From NCBI GenBank assembly GCA_017470525.1, contig JAFUYM010000059.1, positions 1 through 36,097 on the forward strand: a DNA stretch of 36,097 nt, read 5' to 3'. Made by a program: the position numbers and the translations under genes. The notes under the pieces are model-generated. The model was not told where the DNA came from and did no database searches. It worked only from the letters and a program-made list of their open reading frames with translations. This stretch comes from Bacteroidaceae bacterium. GTDB lineage: Bacteria; Bacteroidota; Bacteroidia; Bacteroidales; Bacteroidaceae. This document shows, piece by piece, positions 5,367 through 31,991 of this stretch; positions within the stretch are counted from its first letter, which is position 1; each line of letters begins with the position of its first letter.

Positions 5367-7478
5367 ATGAAATTGAAATCTATTATAGTTTGTGGTCTGA
5401 TCCTGCTCGGAGTTGGAGCAGCCACTACATCATGCGAGGACATGTTTACAGCAGAGAACTCACTGGTTACCACTGACCTCGCTCCGAAGGATACGCTTTA
5501 TCAGGTGATGGGTATTGTCAAGCGTATGCAGAAACTGGCTGACCGTACAGTTTTGCTGGGCGAGGTTCGTGCAGACCTTGTTGAGGTTGACCCTCTGCAT
5601 GCCTCTGTTGATATTCAGGAGTTGGCTGCCAATGCTGTTTCCAACAACAATGTCTATAATAAGCCAGCCGACTACTATGCTGTCATCAACAACTGCAACA
5701 TCTATCTTGCCTATGTTGATACTATGCGTAATGCGCAGGGTACCCGTAAGTACTTTGAGAAAGAGGTTTGTGCAGTCAAGTGCTACCGTGCATGGTGCTA
5801 TCTTGAGTTGCTCAAGAACTATGGTGCCGTGCCATTTGTGACAGAGCCTATTGAGGATTCTGACAAGGCAGAGTCTATCGTGGCATCAGGCAACAAGGCT
5901 GACATGAAGACCATTCTTGATTTCTGCATCAACGACCTCCAGAAGTATCCTTATATGGATGAGAACAATGAACTTCGTCAGAAATACGGTTCCACGGCAT
6001 CCTATGCAGGATTCCGTTACGACGAGATTGCAATTCCTGTTCGTGCGCTTTTGGCTGAATTGTATCTCTGGCGCGGTTCTTATACCGATAGCCAGCAGGA
6101 CTATGTCAATGCTGTCCGCATGTATCACGATTACTTCACTTTCCCAAGTGAGGAATTGAATACCGGCGATAATGGTAACCGTTGGCAAGACCGCGACTTT
6201 AACAGGCAGCCAAGTAACAGTTACACATCCTACTTCAGCAGCAACACTCGTCTGAATGCTGGTATTCTTCCTTTGGATACGACCGTGTATTTCGGTACAG
6301 TGACAGACCTCCGTGCTGTCTTCAACTCTCAGTACTCTAACAAGTACTATCCATCCGTGCTGCCTTCTCAGCGCGTGAAAGACATCTCAAAGGCGCAGGA
6401 CTACTGTATGTACATCTATGAAGATAATAGAGCAGATACTATTTATGGTCCTCATGATGGTAACTATTACGATGAGAAGATTATGGAAGGTGACCTCCGT
6501 TTGAATACGGTTTATGAGACTTCCAGTAACTTCCGTGAGAGCCAGTACAACAGCGATGTGAGCCCAATGCGTTATGAGATCAAGAAGTATTCAGGAGAGC
6601 GTGACCGTAACTCTGATGCAAGACTGGCATACATTCCGTTCTACCGCAACAACATTTTGTATCTCCACATGGCAGAGGCTTTGAACCGTGCAGGCTTCCC
6701 TGAAACTGCATTTGCCGTGCTGAAGTATGGTCTTTCCTACTACACATTGACAGACCGTGACATCATCTCGCAGGATGAGTTCGACCGTCTTTGCGACATC
6801 AAGTCTTATGGATTCACGATTCAGGATGCGAAGTATTCTGAAGATGAGGAACTTTCAAGCAAGACGAATGGTTCATTCATCATCTGGGATTCTGGCGTGT
6901 TCGGTACGAAAGATAAGTCAACCTCTGGTGGTCTTGGTCAGATTCCTGTGCTCGGCGGCACTCGCGTGAATGTCGGCATCCACTCTTTGGGTAGTGGCGA
7001 TACGGAATACAATAAGTATTATTACTTGGATGATTCTGCGACACTGGCTGAGATGGAGAGCAAATATCCTTATCCAGCAGAACCTGTATATGAAGAATTG
7101 CCAGAACTTGACGAGACTTCCACCGCAGAAGACTCTTTGGCTTATCAGGCTGTTGTTGATGCCAATGCTGAGGCAGATTCTCTTTACAACGAGGCTGTTC
7201 AGAATACTGATGCTCTCCGTCTGGCTTATAAGGCATCCGACCCAGTTCGTGCAACGCGTCAGGCTCATGTGGCTCAACTGATTCTCGAAGAGGAGGCGCT
7301 CGAAGGCATGTTCGAGGGTGTTCGTTTCTACGACATCATGCGTTACCAGATGCAGGACAAGAAGGGTGGTCAGAACATCGGCACCACTATCACGCTTCCT
7401 GCTTATATCGAGGAGAAGTACGGCGCAACGCCAACCATGACGGGAAAACCGTGGTATCTCACATTACCCGCTCGCTAA
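5367..7478 (+). CDS. RagB/SusD-family nutrient-binding outer-membrane lipoprotein
   Basis: 703 residues with a lipobox ending at Cys23 (TTSC). SusD hallmarks are the TPR-like core with CYRAWCYLELLKNYGAVPFV and, near the C terminus, LEEEALEGMFEGVRFYDIMRY, the family's E-R-x-x-E-F-x-G-x-R-x-x-D-x-x-R region. It should form the lid on the SusC-like porin encoded immediately upstream and bind the substrate at the cell surface. It is somewhat longer than usual. Part of the excess is a low-complexity acidic segment at about residues 564-624 (nt 7060-7240), rich in E, D, A and Y, just before the C-terminal motif; it may be an inserted helical hairpin. It is the last gene of the operon, followed by a strong terminator. 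Confidence 0.95.
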   Translation: MKLKSIIVCGLILLGVGAATTSCEDMFTAENSLVTTDLAPKDTLYQVMGIVKRMQKLADRTVLLGEVRADLVEVDPLHASVDIQELAANAVSNNNVYNKPADYYAVINNCNIYLAYVDTMRNAQGTRKYFEKEVCAVKCYRAWCYLELLKNYGAVPFVTEPIEDSDKAESIVASGNKADMKTILDFCINDLQKYPYMDENNELRQKYGSTASYAGFRYDEIAIPVRALLAELYLWRGSYTDSQQDYVNAVRMYHDYFTFPSEELNTGDNGNRWQDRDFNRQPSNSYTSYFSSNTRLNAGILPLDTTVYFGTVTDLRAVFNSQYSNKYYPSVLPSQRVKDISKAQDYCMYIYEDNRADTIYGPHDGNYYDEKIMEGDLRLNTVYETSSNFRESQYNSDVSPMRYEIKKYSGERDRNSDARLAYIPFYRNNILYLHMAEALNRAGFPETAFAVLKYGLSYYTLTDRDIISQDEFDRLCDIKSYGFTIQDAKYSEDEELSSKTNGSFIIWDSGVFGTKDKSTSGGLGQIPVLGGTRVNVGIHSLGSGDTEYNKYYYLDDSATLAEMESKYPYPAEPVYEELPELDETSTAEDSLAYQAVVDANAEADSLYNEAVQNTDALRLAYKASDPVRATRQAHVAQLILEEEALEGMFEGVRFYDIMRYQMQDKKGGQNIGTTITLPAYIEEKYGATPTMTGKPWYLTLPAR

Positions 7479-10611: not shown

Positions 10612-10702
10612 CCTCTTTTTGCCCCCAAATCGGACTGGAGCAGTCCGACACGCCGCACTGGAGCAGTCCGATGTATCGGACTGCTCCAGTGCGATAAAGA
10701 GG
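10612..10702. repeat. Double-hairpin repeat element, copy A
   Basis: This element fills the gap between two convergent genes. It has a 19-bp palindrome TCGGACTGGAGCAGTCCGA (10630-10648). A perfect 17-bp stem (10655-10671 with 10676-10692, loop TGTA) is built from the same words, GCACTGGAGCAGTCCGA and its complement. The outer arms CCTCTTT (10612-10618) and AAAGAGG (10696-10702) could enclose both hairpins. A second copy in the opposite orientation lies at 29650-29724. C-rich runs lie to its left (10588-10626). Confidence 0.85.
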
Positions 10703-12850: not shown

Positions 12851-13928
12851 CGATAAGAAGAAAAACCTGAAGGCAGGACTCACCACTCTGGTGGTGCATG
12901 CGCTCCTCGTCCTGTTGCTTGCCATCCTCACGCTTTCGGTCGTGCAGCCTGACAAGGACAAGGAAGATGGTGTGCCCGTGCTGCTTGGCATGGTGGAAGA
13001 TGCGGGTGGTGAGGATTTAGGTGGATTGCCGTCGGATGCCGGTGACGATGCCGAGGCGGACGAACCTGCTACGGATGCAACCGATGCAGAGGAAGTGCCT
13101 TTGGCTCCAGTCCCAGAACCTCAACCCATTGCAAAACCTGAGCCAAAGCCTATCGTAAAACCTGAACCGAAACCTGTTCCTGTCGCAAAACCCACTCCTA
13201 AGCCGGAGCCTAAAGTTGCGGAAAAGCCTCTCATCACACAAGACCAAGAGAAGTCCATCGCCGCCGAAGCCGCCAAGAAACGTGCAGCGGAAGAGGCTGA
13301 AAAGAAGCGCATAGCAGAAGAACAGGCTAAAAGACGTGCTGCTGAAGAAGCCGCCCGCAAGAAAGCCGCAGAAGAGGCAGCCCAAAAACGTGCTGCTGAA
13401 GAAGCCGCTCGCAAGAAGGCTGCCGAGGAAGCCGCCAAGAAACGTGCTGCCGAGGAAGCGGCTCGCAAAAAAGCCGCAGAAGAAGCCGCCAAGAAAGCCG
13501 CTGCCGAGAAAGCCGCTGCCGCAGCCGCCAACAGTCGTGTGACTGGTGCGTTTGGCAATGCAGGTAACAAAGGTAGCAGTGGCAACACAACGGGCAATGG
13601 CTCACAAGGTTCACCGACTGGCAACAGCAATGTGGGTGCCACGACGGGTGTAGGTGGCATGGGTACAGGCACGTCCGCCAAAGTGGGCAATCGCCTTGTG
13701 GTCTATCTGGCTAAACCCAACTATGCTGACCCCAACAATGAAGGCACGGTGGTTGTCTCCATTCAAGTCAGTGCATCGGGTGCTGTCATCAGTGCCAGCG
13801 TGACCAGCAGCACCACCTCGTCTGCTGCCTTGAAGAATGCCGCCATCGCTGCTGCCAAGCAGTCGAAGTTCTCTGAAGGAGAAAAGACCGAAAGCGGCAC
13901 TATCACCTACCGATTCAAACTCAGATAA
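12843..13928 (+). CDS. tonB: TonB-like energy transducer with TolA-type helical repeats
   Basis: 361 residues from the ATG at 12843, chosen because it overlaps the exbD stop and places one membrane helix (about residues 13-33) right after a short basic N terminus. In order: an acidic stretch; a proline/lysine-rich segment of PEPKP repeats; an alanine/glutamate/lysine helix with three near-identical 18-residue units; a Gly/Ser/Asn-rich linker; and a C-terminal TonB/TolA-like domain of about 80 residues beginning GNRLVVYLAKPNY. It spans the periplasm to contact outer-membrane receptors. The mix of TonB-like PK repeats and a TolA-like helix makes the TonB/TolA assignment uncertain, though ExbBD linkage is clear. 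Confidence 0.85.
   Translation: MSDDKKKNLKAGLTTLVVHALLVLLLAILTLSVVQPDKDKEDGVPVLLGMVEDAGGEDLGGLPSDAGDDAEADEPATDATDAEEVPLAPVPEPQPIAKPEPKPIVKPEPKPVPVAKPTPKPEPKVAEKPLITQDQEKSIAAEAAKKRAAEEAEKKRIAEEQAKRRAAEEAARKKAAEEAAQKRAAEEAARKKAAEEAAKKRAAEEAARKKAAEEAAKKAAAEKAAAAAANSRVTGAFGNAGNKGSSGNTTGNGSQGSPTGNSNVGATTGVGGMGTGTSAKVGNRLVVYLAKPNYADPNNEGTVVVSIQVSASGAVISASVTSSTTSSAALKNAAIAAAKQSKFSEGEKTESGTITYRFKLR
13332..13493 (+). repeat. Three tandem 54-bp units inside tonB
   Basis: Three 54-bp units (13332-13385, 13386-13439, 13440-13493) each encode 18 residues of the pattern [K/R]RAAEEAARKKAAEEAA[Q/K]. The protein repeat is nearly exact while codons differ between units. Copy number could vary between strains and change the length of the periplasmic helix. 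Confidence 0.85.
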
Positions 13929-17870: not shown

Positions 17871-18238
17871 GTCATGAGATAGCCGAGCATTCCTTCTTTG
17901 CGCATATCGCGTAGTCTGGGATTGTATCGTATCTCTGGCTGCACGAATCCTACGGAGTCGATGGCCGAGAGCATGATGAGGTAGGTGGAGTCGGCTGTGA
18001 CGATAATTTGGCTTACATAGTCATCGTGCTCCATGCCAAGCGTGTCGAGTTTCGAGTACGATATCTTCTCGACCTCGTCGTAGAAGAACCCGTCGAAGTG
18101 ACCGTCGTTTTGGTAGATGTAGAAGGCTGCGTTCTCGTCCTGTGCCTGTGTTTGGAAATGGAGAATGAAGAATGATAGCAACGTGAGGCAGCGCAACCAA
18201 TTATACATTCTGTATTGTGAATTATGAATTATTTTCAT
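17852..18238 (-). CDS. Signal-peptide-bearing N-terminal part of the split secreted protein
   Basis: 128 residues. The signal peptide has the hydrophobic stretch LTLLSFFILHF and probable cleavage after QTQAQ. A short beta-rich region with ISYSKLDTLGMEHDDYVSQ and AIDSVGFVQPEIRYNP follows. This pattern resembles the N termini of Bacteroidales secreted proteins in which the chain continues directly into a domain like that encoded by the next frame. The ATG at 18238 overlaps the upstream stop (ATGA); a second start at 18208 would give a more compact signal peptide. The last residues (MTWMRRQ) look like out-of-frame sequence. It is best read as the 5' part of one gene with the 762-codon frame. Confidence 0.7.
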   Translation of the reverse strand: MKIIHNSQYRMYNWLRCLTLLSFFILHFQTQAQDENAAFYIYQNDGHFDGFFYDEVEKISYSKLDTLGMEHDDYVSQIIVTADSTYLIMLSAIDSVGFVQPEIRYNPRLRDMRKEGMLGYLMTWMRRQ

Positions 18239-19906: not shown

Positions 19907-20145
19907 CGCATTTTAATTCATAATTGATAATTCATAATTCATAATTTGCTATCCCGCATGCTTCTTTCCTGAAAAAACATGCCGAAAGGCCAATTATGAA
20001 TTGATTTGCTATCCAACTGAAGGAGAAAGGTGTGTCAGAAAAGCAAATGATTGTCAGATTGCATGGCGACACCATTCAGCCTTTCCCCGAAAACGACAAG
20101 AACCGTTGTGTGATTATCGAGGAAAGTAGAAACGATGGACAATGT
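19907..20145. other. Gene-free stretch with AT-rich repeats
   Basis: 19914-19947 consists of reiterated AATTCATAATT-type words. The 10-bp word TTTGCTATCC occurs at 19945-19954 and again at 20005-20014, bracketing about 50 bp that include AATTATGAATT. A short plus-strand frame begins with GTG at 20032 behind AAGGAG, but it runs through the terminator and into antisense sequence, so I do not call it a gene. Confidence 0.6.
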
Positions 20146-27962: not shown

Positions 27963-28079
27963 CTGAAAAACTAAAAACTAACCGCTAAAAACGACAATTA
28001 AATATGAGTTTTGTGAAAAATAATAGACAAATATAACTTAAACTTTTGGTTTTTGGCTGTTGGTTTTTAAGTTTTTCAG

Positions 28080-28964: not shown

Positions 28965-29555
28965 ATGAGTTATAAATTGTTTGTACGAGACGATATTGGG
29001 AGCATCACTTCTGAACAGTTGGAGCAAGCCATAGCCTCCCTGCCCGAATGGCGTCGGGAGAAAGCCCTGCGCTTCAAGTTTGAGCAGGGGCGGAAAGAGT
29101 GTGCCGTTGCCTATCTGCTGCTTTGCAAAGCATTGAAAGAGGGCTTCGGCATTGATGAGCAGCCCCATTTTTCCATAGGAGAGCATGGCAAACCCTCTTT
29201 GGTGGAGCATCCCGAGATTCATTTTAATGTGAGCCATTGCAAGAAAGCCGTGGCATGTGTAGTGTCTTCCGAAGCGGTAGGTGTGGATGTTGAGTGCATC
29301 GGACGTTACAACGAAGCCCTTGCCCGCCATGTTCTCAATGACAAAGAGTATGCCCAGGTGTGTCAATCCTCTAACCCTCAGTTACTTTTCACCTCATATT
29401 GGACACAGAAAGAAGCCATCGTCAAACTCACAGGACGTGGCATCGACGACGACCTCAAGAACCTTCTTCTGAACTATCCCCAAGTGTCGCTCCACACCGA
29501 AACCCATCCCGAAAAGGGCTATGTTCTTACAGTGGCGACATGGAAAACTCCTTGA
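28965..29555 (+). CDS. 4'-phosphopantetheinyl transferase (Sfp/AcpS superfamily)
   Basis: 196 residues. It transfers 4'-phosphopantetheine from CoA to a serine of a carrier protein. Visible signatures: PSLVEHPEIHFNVSHCKKAV, the Mg-binding VGVDVE (Asp108, Glu110), and the second motif YWTQKEAIVKLTGRG (Trp146, Lys149, Glu150). It is nearer the Sfp type than AcpS by length and motif order. No carrier protein, polyketide or peptide synthetase gene is nearby, so its partner is encoded elsewhere. Confidence 0.93.
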   Translation: MSYKLFVRDDIGSITSEQLEQAIASLPEWRREKALRFKFEQGRKECAVAYLLLCKALKEGFGIDEQPHFSIGEHGKPSLVEHPEIHFNVSHCKKAVACVVSSEAVGVDVECIGRYNEALARHVLNDKEYAQVCQSSNPQLLFTSYWTQKEAIVKLTGRGIDDDLKNLLLNYPQVSLHTETHPEKGYVLTVATWKTP

Positions 29556-29649: not shown

Positions 29650-29724
29650 CTCAATCGCACTGCTCCAGTCCGACACGTCGGACTGGAGCAGTGCGGTTCA
29701 TCGGACTGGAGCAGTCCGATTGAG
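29650..29724. repeat. Double-hairpin repeat element, copy B (inverted relative to copy A)
   Basis: A perfect 18-bp stem (29656-29673 with 29678-29695, loop CACG) is built from CGCACTGCTCCAGTCCGA and its complement. A 19-bp palindrome TCGGACTGGAGCAGTCCGA follows at 29701-29719, the same word as in copy A. Outer arms CTCAAT (29650-29655) and ATTGAG (29719-29724) could enclose both. The order of large and small hairpin is reversed compared with copy A, and a G-rich tract follows at 29736. Confidence 0.85.
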
Positions 29725-29779: not shown

Positions 29780-30005
29780 ATATTTATGTTTTTTTGTGAG
29801 AATAATTGGAGTTTAACGTGGTAAAGTGACAAAATGCAAGAGTTGTTCCTTCCTTTTTACGCCATTATCGTTTACAAAACACTGTACCGATATCTATGAA
29901 CCCCCGCAACCATAGCCTTCACACATAGTCGCCCATAATCTTCATGCTCTTTCTTCCGTTGCTTTGAACAATCCTCGTAACCTCTATTTGCTGCTTTACA
30001 GAACT
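29780..30005. other. Gene-free stretch between the terminator and the 23-bp array
   Basis: About 225 bp without a gene I can support. A minus-strand frame from about 30017 down to a TAA near 29870 is open for roughly 50 codons but has no start at its head and no recognisable motif. It could be a remnant. No promoter or RNA gene was recognised. Confidence 0.5.
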
Positions 30006-30174
30006 TCTGAAGACTTTGGTTTGATTATAGAAATAGGTTTAGTTTGATTATAGAAATAGGTTTGGCTTGAATACACAGAAATATAATCAAGCCAAATTGA
30101 AAGTTGTATTCAAGCCAAATTTTGAGGTGTAATCAGGCTAAATGAATTTGAGTAGTCAGGCTGACTATTGAAGT
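30006..30174. repeat. Seven-unit array with 23-bp period, three units inverted and four direct
   Basis: Core 11-bp words start at 30018, 30041 and 30064 (GGTTTGATTAT, AGTTTGATTAT, GGCTTGAATAC). In the opposite orientation they start at 30083, 30106, 30129 and 30152 (ATAATCAAGCC, GTATTCAAGCC, GTAATCAGGCT, GTAGTCAGGCT). Spacing within each half is exactly 23 bp, and 8 bp separate the halves. Conservation extends a few bases past the core (AAA after GCC) and then decays. The outermost unit of each half is the most diverged. Confidence 0.85.
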
Positions 30175-30209
30175 GGAATAGGGTGGTAGATGAAGGTGGA
30201 AACACAAGA

Positions 30210-30250
30210 AATGCCTCCAGACAGTAGGGGAAGGAATGTCTGGAGGCATT
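30210..30250 (-). terminator. Terminator hairpin of formate-tetrahydrofolate ligase
   Basis: AATGCCTCCAGACA (30210-30223) and its complement at 30237-30250 form a perfect 14-bp stem with a 13-nt loop. It lies 28 bp past the stop at 30279 on the minus strand and is followed there by T-rich sequence. Confidence 0.75.
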
Positions 30251-30278: not shown

Positions 30279-31946
30279 TTATGAGAGTCCCTCGATGAGT
30301 CCGTTGACGATGTCGATGCGTTCTGCTTGGGGTGACTTGGAAAGTCCTGGCATGCGCATGATGTCGCCTGCGATGGCTACAATCATTTCCGAACCGGAAT
30401 TGATGACGAGGTCGCGGATGTTGACGTTGAAGCCTGTTGGACAACCATAGAGGTCTTTGTCGGCAGAGAAGGAGTACTGGGTCTTGGCAATGCAGACGGG
30501 GTAGCGCTCCAAGCCTATCTTCTGGATGCGGAGGAGTTGCTTCTCGGCTGCCTTGCTGTAGGTGACGGTGGCGGCTCCGTAAATCTTCTTCGCCACCTTC
30601 TCTATCTTGGTCTTGATGTCGTCGGTGTCGTCGTAGGTGAGGGTGAGCGGCTGGGATGGCTTCTGCTCGATGGTGTCGATGACTACCTGTGCGAGTTCCT
30701 TGGCTCCTTCGCCACCCTGGAGGAAGGCGTTGTTGACGGCGAAGCCCACGCCGATGTTTGCGCAATGTTTGCGAACGAGGGCAATTTCTTCGTCGGTGTC
30801 GGTGGCATAGCGGTTGAAGGCAACGACTACGCTCTGACCGAAACTCTGCATGTTGCGGATGTGGCGGTCGAGGTTCTCACAGCCTTTCACGAGTCCTTCC
30901 ATGTCTGGCTCCTTGATGCGCTCTACGGGCACACCGCCGTGCATTTTCAGTCCTTGCGTGGTGGCAACAATGACGGTCAGTTTGGGCTGGAGTCCGCTCT
31001 TGCGGCACTTGATGTTGAAGAACTTTTCGGCTCCGAGGTCGGCACCGAATCCTGCCTCTGTCACTACGTATTCGCCGTAGGTCATTGCCATGCGTGTGGC
31101 GATGATGGTGTTGCAGCCGTGGGCGATGTTGGCGAAGGGACCTCCATGCACAAAGGCTGGAGTCTGTTCGGTGGTCTGCACCAGGTTGGGCTTGATGGCA
31201 TCGAGCAGCAACACGGTGATGGCTCCATCCACGCCCATGTCCTTCACGCGGAAGGGGGTGTCGTCCATCTTGATGCCGAGGATGATGTTGCCGATGCGGC
31301 GGCGCAGGTCGTCAATGTCTTTTGATAAGCAGAGGATTGCCATGATTTCGGAGGCTGGGGTGATGTCGAAGCCTGTCTCGGCAATCAGCCCGTCAGACTT
31401 GGCACCCAGACCTGTGACCACAAATCGGAGGTTGCGGTCGTTGACATCGAGCACACGCTTCCACAGCACTTCTTTCAGGGCAAAGCCTTCCTCGCGGTGC
31501 ATGTAGATGTAGTTGTCGAGCAGGGCGGCAATCATGTTGTTGGCAGAAGTGACGGCATGGAAGTCGCCTGTGAAGTGAAGGTTAATCTTCTCCATAGGCA
31601 GCACCTGTGCATAGCCGCCACCGGCAGCACCGCCCTTCACTCCGAAGCAGGGACCCAGAGATGGCTCTCTCAAGGCACACACTGCCTTCTTGCCGAGTTT
31701 GTTGAGTCCGAGAGCAAGACCGATGCTCACAGTTGTCTTGCCGATGCCAGCCTTGGTGGGCGTGATGGCGGTGACAAGGATGAGGTTGCTCTGCTTCACC
31801 TTCTCCTCGTCAATCAGGTGGTTGGGCACCTTGGCAATGTATTTGCCGTACAGTTCCAGTTCTTCTTCAGGAACGTCAATGTATCTCGCTACATCCTGAA
31901 TTGAGGCGAGTTTACACTCTCTTGCAATTTCAATGTCTGTTTTCAT
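30279..31946 (-). CDS. fhs: Formate-tetrahydrofolate ligase
   Basis: 555 residues from the ATG at 31946 ([13 protein letters not shown]). The frame extends 15 codons further upstream but that part covers the promoter. It makes 10-formyl-tetrahydrofolate from formate, ATP and tetrahydrofolate, supplying one-carbon units. Family signatures: the ATP-binding loop [11 protein letters not shown] (an insertion relative to TPAGEGKTT), [21 protein letters not shown] and [10 protein letters not shown]. Length is normal. It stands alone between two terminators. Confidence 0.97.
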
Positions 31947-31979
31947 ATAGGGTTTAGGTTGTTTATGTTTCGTTGGTTG

Positions 31980-31987
31980 CAAAGGTA
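31980..31987 (-). promoter_or_regulatory. -7 box (TACCTTTG) of fhs
   Basis: TACCTTTG on the minus strand, 34 bp upstream of the fhs start, right beside the terminator of the preceding minus-strand gene. No clear TTTG at the -33 position. Confidence 0.5.
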
Positions 31988-31991
31988 ACAA

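What the first reader, a model, noticed from the sequence alone, without database searches (positions are those of the whole stretch)
30006..30174. Inverted/direct 3+4 array of 23-bp-spaced units with consensus TAATCAAGCCAAA
Seven related units sit at exact 23-bp spacing. Three lie in one orientation (cores at 30018, 30041, 30064) and four in the other (30083, 30106, 30129, 30152), with an 8-bp centre, so the whole is a large imperfect palindrome. The period is not a multiple of 3, so it is not coding. It is not CRISPR-like, because the units touch without spacers. About 2.2 helical turns per unit would place a bound protein on changing faces. The drift toward the ends suggests growth from the middle. 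It could be an operator array, an iteron-like site, or a folded RNA. I know of no described element with this arrangement.
Basis: seen in the sequence. Interest (0 to 1): 0.72.

Follow-up and report, generated by a model that had tools for sequence, protein, structure and literature searches.

The report
Dispersed 23-bp site arrays between genes
The stretch is one copy of a repeated DNA element in a group of uncultured gut bacteria, built from short binding-site-like units locked at 23-base steps; the same step is found just in front of the genes for one barely studied type of ATPase, which suggests what may bind it.

Summary
The array is real: three inverted and three direct 13-mers start at exact 23-bp steps, also across the centre. 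It is not unique: 50 pattern matches in 9 of 45 genus genomes (control 0). The 48 distinct copies analysed lie between genes, show one inversion, and gain or lose whole 23-mers. Arms of one element are not more complementary to each other than to arms of other elements, so hairpin folding is not what is kept; sites on double-stranded DNA fit better.

Intergenic 23-bp arrays of unrelated units are common in the genus, mostly as palindrome trimers (two in this window).

Key lead: AAA_14-DUF4143 ATPase genes of the GPKxCGKT type carry a 23-bp array just upstream in 20 of 20 test genes (Bacteroidota, Chlorobiota, Actinomycetota, Bacillota, viral contigs); control windows 2 of 470. Another subtype shows 33 bp (5 of 6). 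Several promoter units share GCCAAA with this array, in register.

I read the finding as a dispersed iteron-like array of that kind, probably bound by such an ATPase. Binding is inferred; no GPK-type gene was seen in the window's own 83%-complete genome. I found no description of the class; P. gingivalis BrickBuilt (23-nt units) is nearest.

The parts
30015..30027 (-). site 3 of the left arm (TAATCAAACCAAA)
30038..30050 (-). site 2 of the left arm (TAATCAAACTAAA)
30061..30073 (-). site 1 of the left arm (TATTCAAGCCAAA)
30074..30083 (.). 10-bp centre where the orientation switches, still in the 23-bp register
30084..30096 (+). site 1 of the right arm (TAATCAAGCCAAA)
30107..30119 (+). site 2 of the right arm (TATTCAAGCCAAA)
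30130..30142 (+). site 3 of the right arm (TAATCAGGCTAAA)
30153..30165 (+). decayed site 4 of the right arm (TAGTCAGGCTGAC)
   Evidence: 3 mismatches
29946..30014 (-). three degenerate outer 23-mers of the left arm; similar flank in the copies at G000:C66 and G020:C45
   Evidence: register signal of outer units over 96 arms
30166..30211 (+). two degenerate outer 23-mers of the right arm (weak in this copy)
29656..29718 (.). F2 trimer (17-bp near-palindromes, 23-bp steps) in the same gene gap; same class, different unit
10631..10693 (.). second F2 trimer in the window

Best explanation
The array is one copy of a dispersed, polar, intergenic element made of sites (KTGTAWTCARGCYAAA, 16 bp plus a 7-bp spacer) held at exactly 23 bp in two arms that read outward from one inversion point (shown by sequence). 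It is of the same kind, by period and by a GCCAAA motif in register, as the arrays just upstream of GPKxCGKT-type AAA_14-DUF4143 genes (shown as an association). Most likely mechanism (inferred): an AAA_14-DUF4143 protein (AAA ATPase, winged-helix-like middle, PD-(D/E)XK-like end) binds double-stranded DNA side by side, one protein unit per 23-bp step. At its own promoter this would autoregulate; at dispersed copies such as this one it would build a nucleoprotein array between genes. Units are gained and lost as whole 23-mers in one arm, and copies reach new places by an unknown route.
For: Family and register: 50 matches in 9 of 45 genomes, control 0; all spacings 23 in 45 of 50 arrays, the five exceptions being weak 3-4-mismatch end matches. 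No hairpin covariation. Promoter-array rule: 7 of 7 discovery genes (three of them, L212, L197 and L326/L070, had drawn notice through their arrays), then 20 of 20 test relatives with lag 23 or its double on top, 19 of 19 against 2 of 470 control windows. Period tied to subtype: 33 bp on top in 5 of 6 GARR-type plasmid genes. Motif: a PWM from promoter units outside the genus scores F1 best at its own register and strand; 85 of 2000 shuffled F1 units scored as high. Protein model compatible with DNA binding.
Against: No GPK-type gene among the DUF4143 hits read in G000 (5 of 6 hits read), G020 or G017; these are MAGs of 83, 81 and 98% completeness. G026 and G007 have one each, with promoter units that are not F1. 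The motif match is only moderate. Dispersed F1 copies are inverted, promoter arrays are not. A GCCAAAT array without a DUF4143 gene beside it exists on two related viral contigs. 23-bp arrays also lie downstream of one GPK-type gene (L212) and of a gene of another type (L328). Genes of several other DUF4143 subtypes show no array. No binding data.
Confidence: 0.45

Rival explanations
1. A BrickBuilt-like selfish minisatellite or MITE: a non-autonomous dispersed repeat whose 23-bp arrays expand by slippage, with no bound protein behind the period.
For: Dispersed, intergenic, species-limited, variable unit number; whole units gained or lost; related trimers present or absent at syntenic places; BrickBuilt also has a 23-nt unit (PMC4596501).
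Against: The register persists into diverged outer units (9.4, 6.0, 4.5, 2.1 bits); short arms show no indel in 7 of 8 ortholog pairs with 47 substitutions in 1127 bp (pairs share some loci); many unrelated units keep the same step; upstream arrays of one gene type keep it across phyla.
Confidence: 0.25
2. Operator or nucleoid-organising site of another DNA-binding protein (for example a phage-repressor-like HTH dimer), unrelated to DUF4143. The palindrome trimers have the geometry of lambda operators: three 17-bp sites with 6-bp spacers (lambda recalled, from no call).
For: Strict geometry on double-stranded DNA; inverted arrangement; no preference for one gene context.
Against: No candidate protein found; the period coincides with the DUF4143 promoter arrays and the motif fits moderately.
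Confidence: 0.2
3. A folded RNA, cruciform or REP/BIME-like 3'-end hairpin.
For: The whole is an imperfect palindrome; the related F3 trimers sit near gene 3' ends (14 convergent, 13 tandem, 1 divergent of 32; 4 overlapped by crude ORFs).
Against: Within-element arm identity is lower than between elements (site 1: 0.866 against 0.900; spacer 2: 0.405 against 0.564). F2 half-sites pair in 15 of 39 units against 20.8 expected if independent. F1 has no 3'-end bias. No Rfam family at gathering score. No PF01797 (RAYT-type) hit in G002 or G014, which hold F3 units.
Confidence: 0.07

Closest known systems
BrickBuilt MITE of Porphyromonas gingivalis (PMC4596501; abstract, outline, parts 1-3 of 9 of the text and section 8 read)
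   Same: 23-nt tandem units without spacers, dispersed, always intergenic, unit number varying between strains.
   Different: Unit AGAYCATARTATCCTCTCRTRTG, not similar to F1 by PWM or eye; described as head-to-tail with leader and tail and IS5-like terminal inverted repeats; no outward two-arm layout described in the parts read.
REP/BIME elements and RAYT transposases (PMC3733652, passages only; PMC2817692, listing only)
   Same: Dispersed intergenic palindromic repeats in clusters; F3 trimers lie near gene 3' ends.
   Different: Fixed 23-bp step, usually three units, many unrelated unit sequences; no PF01797 hit in G002 or G014; F1 sites are not palindromes.
Iteron arrays of plasmid replication initiators (recalled)
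   Same: Tandem sites about two helical turns apart upstream of the gene for the presumed binding protein.
   Different: The gene codes for an AAA_14-DUF4143 ATPase, and arrays also occur dispersed and inverted; replication function untested.
Lambda-type operator triplets (recalled)
   Same: Three 17-bp near-palindromes about 23-24 bp apart: geometry of F2 and F3.
   Different: Dozens of dispersed copies; F1 sites are not palindromes; no repressor gene found.

Membership tests
BrickBuilt MITE | 23-nt tandem unit, dispersed and intergenic | tested here: met
BrickBuilt MITE | BrickBuilt unit sequence | tested here: not met
   Published unit (PMC4596501) scores negative on the promoter PWM that F1 fits and shares no evident stretch with F1
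BrickBuilt MITE | IS5-like terminal inverted repeats GAGACCTTTGCA | not tested
   No systematic search for the repeat was run; none was seen by eye
Array of the GPK-type AAA_14-DUF4143 promoter kind | tandem units at 23 bp | tested here: met
Array of the GPK-type AAA_14-DUF4143 promoter kind | GCCAAA-like motif in register on the gene-sense strand | tested here: inconclusive
   F1 best at its own register and strand, but 85 of 2000 shuffles score as high
Array of the GPK-type AAA_14-DUF4143 promoter kind | lies upstream of an AAA_14-DUF4143 gene | tested here: not met
   F1 copies flank unrelated genes (10 neighbours); one F1 copy in G007 lies about 0.9 kb from a GPK-type gene, on its 3' side (L070)
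Array of the GPK-type AAA_14-DUF4143 promoter kind | bound by the protein | not testable with these tools
   needs a binding experiment
REP/BIME with RAYT | RAYT (PF01797) gene in carriers | tested here: not met
   0 hits in G002, G007, G014; weak 26-bit hit in G000
CRISPR | repeats separated by unique spacers of like length | tested here: not met
   7-bp linkers are themselves repeated and orientation flips
Structured RNA | covariation between paired arms | tested here: not met
   no Rfam match

The most novel reading that the evidence does not exclude
AAA_14-DUF4143 ATPases, a family with almost no literature, are array-reading proteins: each subtype recognises tandem sites at its own fixed step (23 bp for the GPK type, 33 bp for the GARR type). 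Some Bacteroidales carry dispersed, inverted copies of such arrays between genes, and some viral contigs carry them too, as an undescribed chromosome-organising, self-marking or conflict system.
Probability: 0.4. Interest if true: 0.9.

Novelty: new variant of a known kind. Interest (0 to 1): 0.76.

Why it matters
It ties a puzzling intergenic repeat to a concrete, testable partner. A 23-bp array just upstream of every GPK-type gene tested, over four phyla and viral contigs, with another step for another subtype, would give a first handle on a widespread ATPase family: the library searched holds one paper with the word DUF4143 (listing only). It also shows that one genus carries a whole class of intergenic arrays, many unit sequences under one 23-bp rule, that can be compared between species.

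Tried and rejected
Hairpin or RNA: not supported. Promoter or terminator of the flanking genes: no orientation preference of F1. RAYT/REP. A conserved mismatch at the centre, which I first thought general, held in G000 (7 of 7), G007 (7 of 8) and G020 (6 of 8) but not overall (25 of 48): dropped. F2, F3, the outer unit and BrickBuilt do not fit the DUF4143 promoter PWM, so they are tied to F1 only by step, inversion rule and a similar outer flank read by eye. Empty site for F1 itself: none found; no convincing target duplication was seen by eye for the related trimers. The 16-kb window query in G020 found F1 copies and short pieces, not the syntenic locus. Other neighbours of 23-bp arrays (SLFN_AlbA_2, ParA-like, MeaB) gave no rule. 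Viral contigs hold no exact tandem F1 pair. No sequence relative with a solved structure at E below 0.1. Winged-helix and nuclease readings of the model rest on low Z (at most 8.3). Literature: searches listed no description of this class; some searches were noisy.

Full report
What is there. In the gap between a phosphopantetheinyl transferase gene (28965-29555, +) and formate--tetrahydrofolate ligase (30279-31991, -), which both end into it, six 13-mers TAATCAAGCCAAA (0-2 mismatches) start at 30015, 30038, 30061 (-) and 30084, 30107, 30130 (+), each exactly 23 bp from the next, also across the centre. A decayed seventh follows at 30153. I call this unit F1.

It is a family. The window's genome G000 holds further copies of the same layout. 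A two-core pattern with up to 3 mismatches matched 50 places in 9 of 45 genus genomes (G000 9, G007 8, G020 8, G017 8, G026 10, G068 3, G035 2, G003 1, G013 1) and the reversed pattern none. All 50 were fetched or held (and the window); two (L061, L065) repeat L060 and L064 and were dropped, leaving 48. An exact core pattern over the named genome collection gave 13 stretches, 12 in uncultured Prevotellaceae/Bacteroidaceae MAGs (titles name roe deer rumen and goat reticulum for some) and one in a MAG labelled Butyrivibrio. Equal contig lengths suggest that G020, G026, G017, G007, G003 and G068 are RGIG4883, RUG204, RUI029, RGIG3230, RUG242 and SRR8387717_bin.84 (inference).

Anatomy. In the 50 arrays a block of minus sites is followed by a block of plus sites; arrays hold 4 to 13 sites, and all spacings are 23 in 45 of 50. 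The five exceptions (L060 and L061 47, L093 46, L098 45, L102 22) are weak end matches of 3-4 mismatches. The conserved site is KTGTAWTCARGCYAAA with 7-bp spacers. Mean mismatches rise from the centre: 0.22, 0.55, 0.93, 0.97 for units 1 to 4, but 0.45 for unit 5 (22 arms), so the trend is not monotonic in the long arms. Beyond the last F1 site the register goes on: outer 23-mers 1 to 4 carry 9.4, 6.0, 4.5 and 2.1 bits, then 0.6-1.0. In G017 and G026 the paralogs share a short and a long arm with different outer units, so the element is polar. Eight ortholog pairs (some sharing a locus) were compared over 161 bp of the short arm: 7 show 47 substitutions and no indel, the eighth (L088/L096) 34 substitutions and 6 gaps because its outer part is replaced; flanks together had 53 substitutions and 13 gaps in 1035 columns. 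Long arms change by whole 23- or 46-bp blocks. G017 has two copies 2.4 kb apart where G068 has one whose arms match one copy each.

Not a hairpin. If the arms paired, arms of one element, read outward, should be more alike than arms of different elements of the same genome. They are less alike: sites 0.866, 0.803, 0.695 against 0.900, 0.835, 0.749; spacers 0.405, 0.366 against 0.564, 0.444 (48 against 306 comparisons). By crude ORF calls F1 lies in 29 tandem, 11 divergent and 7 convergent gaps and 1 contig edge, like large gaps in general (49, 20, 10). Ten neighbour proteins scanned are unrelated to each other.

A genus-wide class. Lag scans of intergenic DNA gave at lag 23: G000 22 hits in 330 kb, G002 9 in 400 kb, G033 7 in 100 kb, and 2 each in G024, G016 and G063 (67-100 kb); other lags averaged 0.06-0.26. 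In G000, G002, G033 and G063 lag 23 is the highest; in G024 lag 22 ties (2) and in G016 lag 22 is higher (3). Of five genomes of other families (42-80 kb each) G054 gave 3 hits (two arrays), G038 one (no more than some other lags), and G044, G051, G060 none. Units differ between species. F3 (39 exact units in G000, present in 14 of 45 genomes) and F2 (91 exact units in G000) are 17-bp near-palindromes, nearly always in threes: F2 13 of 13 places held, F3 24 of 25 in G000, 8 of 8 in G002, 13 of 14 in G003, and 117 of 117 spacings are 23. The first and third units have inverted centres in 47 of 55 trimers with readable centres. F3 lies near gene 3' ends: 14 convergent, 13 tandem, 1 divergent, 4 overlapped by crude ORFs, of 32; F2 showed no such bias in 11 (2, 2, 2, with 2 edge and 3 overlapped); background gaps 59, 148, 61. 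An outer motif noticed by eye was tested: CACARCCTC-N{60,90}-GAGGYTGTG gave 19 places in 9 of 45 genomes, control 0; 11 have a gap of 73 and 8 a gap of 75. Read by eye, 18 hold three units of several unrelated sequences and one (G026:C27) two units plus a doubled outer motif; the gap-75 ones have a 24-bp step. A 24-bp trimer of G026 is absent at the syntenic place of G017, an F3 trimer of G003 is absent in G026 and G017, and another trimer is conserved between G003 and G026.

The ATPase link. In G054, G038 and G007 a 23-bp array lay just upstream of a gene coding AAA_14 plus DUF4143. A DUF4143 search of seven genus genomes gave 32 hits, 30 fetched. Genes of the type GAVLIEGPKxCGKTTTA had 23-bp arrays within 300 bp upstream: L324, L326, L330, L341, L342; with L212 and L197 that is 7 of 7 having upstream DNA (L325 is cut at a contig end), of which L212, L197 and L326 were noticed through their arrays. 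Genes of the type GA(R)(R/Q)xGK had periods of 32-34 in 6 of 9 (L329, L332, L333, L336, L348, L350; not L331, L337, L339). Among the other types one showed 22 (L327) and one 21 (L335) upstream and the rest nothing; L328 had 23-bp repeats downstream, L343 an F3 trimer downstream, and L346 no usable ORF. L212 also has a 23-bp array downstream.

Independent test. Twenty relatives of the GPK-type protein were taken: all 8 loci of the viral-contig scan, the first 8 of 20 listed plasmid records (265 matched; 30-62% identity) and the first 4 of 7 phage-collection records. Every period from 12 to 60 was scored in 300 bp upstream: lag 23 was top, or second to its double 46, in 20 of 20 (lag-23 scores 23-36 of 36; maxima of 30 shuffles 20-24; weakest L357 and L367). 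Of 18 downstream windows none stood out at 23 (L353 tied lags 22-24 at 24, shuffle maximum 25). L355/L359 are near-identical, as are L364/L365. Controls: 19 of 19 (L359 left out) against 2 of 470 windows elsewhere in the same loci, both covering one spot of L360. For the other subtype 6 of 12 listed plasmid hits (60 records matched) were taken: 33 was top in 5 (L372 barely: 24 against a shuffle maximum of 23) and second to 42 in L377. GPK-type carriers include Bacteroides, Collinsella, Prosthecochloris and Lentilactobacillus.

Does F1 belong with these? Step: yes. Motif: a PWM from promoter units outside the genus scores the F1 consensus best at F1's own register and on the expected strand, but 85 of 2000 shuffled F1 units do as well. 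By eye L352 reads GAGCCAAATCGAAGG against F1 CAAGCCAAATTGAAAG, and the B. ovatus plasmid unit begins AAGCCAAA. F2, F3, an outer unit and BrickBuilt do not fit. Against: no GPK-type gene among the DUF4143 hits read in G000 (one of six not fetched), G020 and G017; G026 and G007 have one each, with other promoter units. A motif-only scan of viral contigs found such an array, without a DUF4143 gene beside it, on two related contigs.

Judgement. Shown: the array, its family, its register, no sign of arm pairing, the genus-wide class, and the upstream-array rule for the GPK type with a different step in another subtype. Inferred: that an AAA_14-DUF4143 protein binds F1 arrays, that it does so once per 23 bp, that promoter arrays autoregulate, and that copies move. 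The nearest described element I found is BrickBuilt (PMC4596501), sharing the 23-nt step, dispersal and intergenic place.

Noticed in passing
L329, L332, L333, L336, L348, L350, L372-L377 (upstream of AAA_14-DUF4143 genes): Genes of the GARR/GARQ type carry arrays of 32-34 bp period, so the step seems tied to protein subtype.
   Followed up: partly
L378:2638-2691 and L379:1845-1898: Two related viral contigs carry a free-standing 23-bp array of AAGCCAAAT units without a DUF4143 gene beside it.
   Followed up: partly
window 10631-10693 and 29656-29718: Two F2 trimers, 17-bp near-palindromes at 23-bp steps; 91 exact units in the genome.
   Followed up: yes
L290:312-345: Another dispersed repeat of about 34 bp with dozens of copies in G026 and G017.
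   Followed up: no
window 18153-18232, 19914-19946, 27966-27992, 28044-28068: Several short arrays with a 7-bp period, some in gene gaps; period 7 was also the commonest in intergenic TRF rows of the fetched loci.
   Followed up: no
L091:4909-5082 and 7270-7466, with L095 and L104: Two F1 copies 2.4 kb apart in G017; G068 has one element matching one arm of each, as if copies had recombined.
   Followed up: partly
L004/L005 and L006/L007: Identical element loci on two contigs each (assembly redundancy or duplication); in L004/L005 the right arm is cut short close to the contig end.
   Followed up: no
window 13314-13517: 54-bp in-frame tandem repeat, about 3 copies, in a coding region.
   Followed up: no
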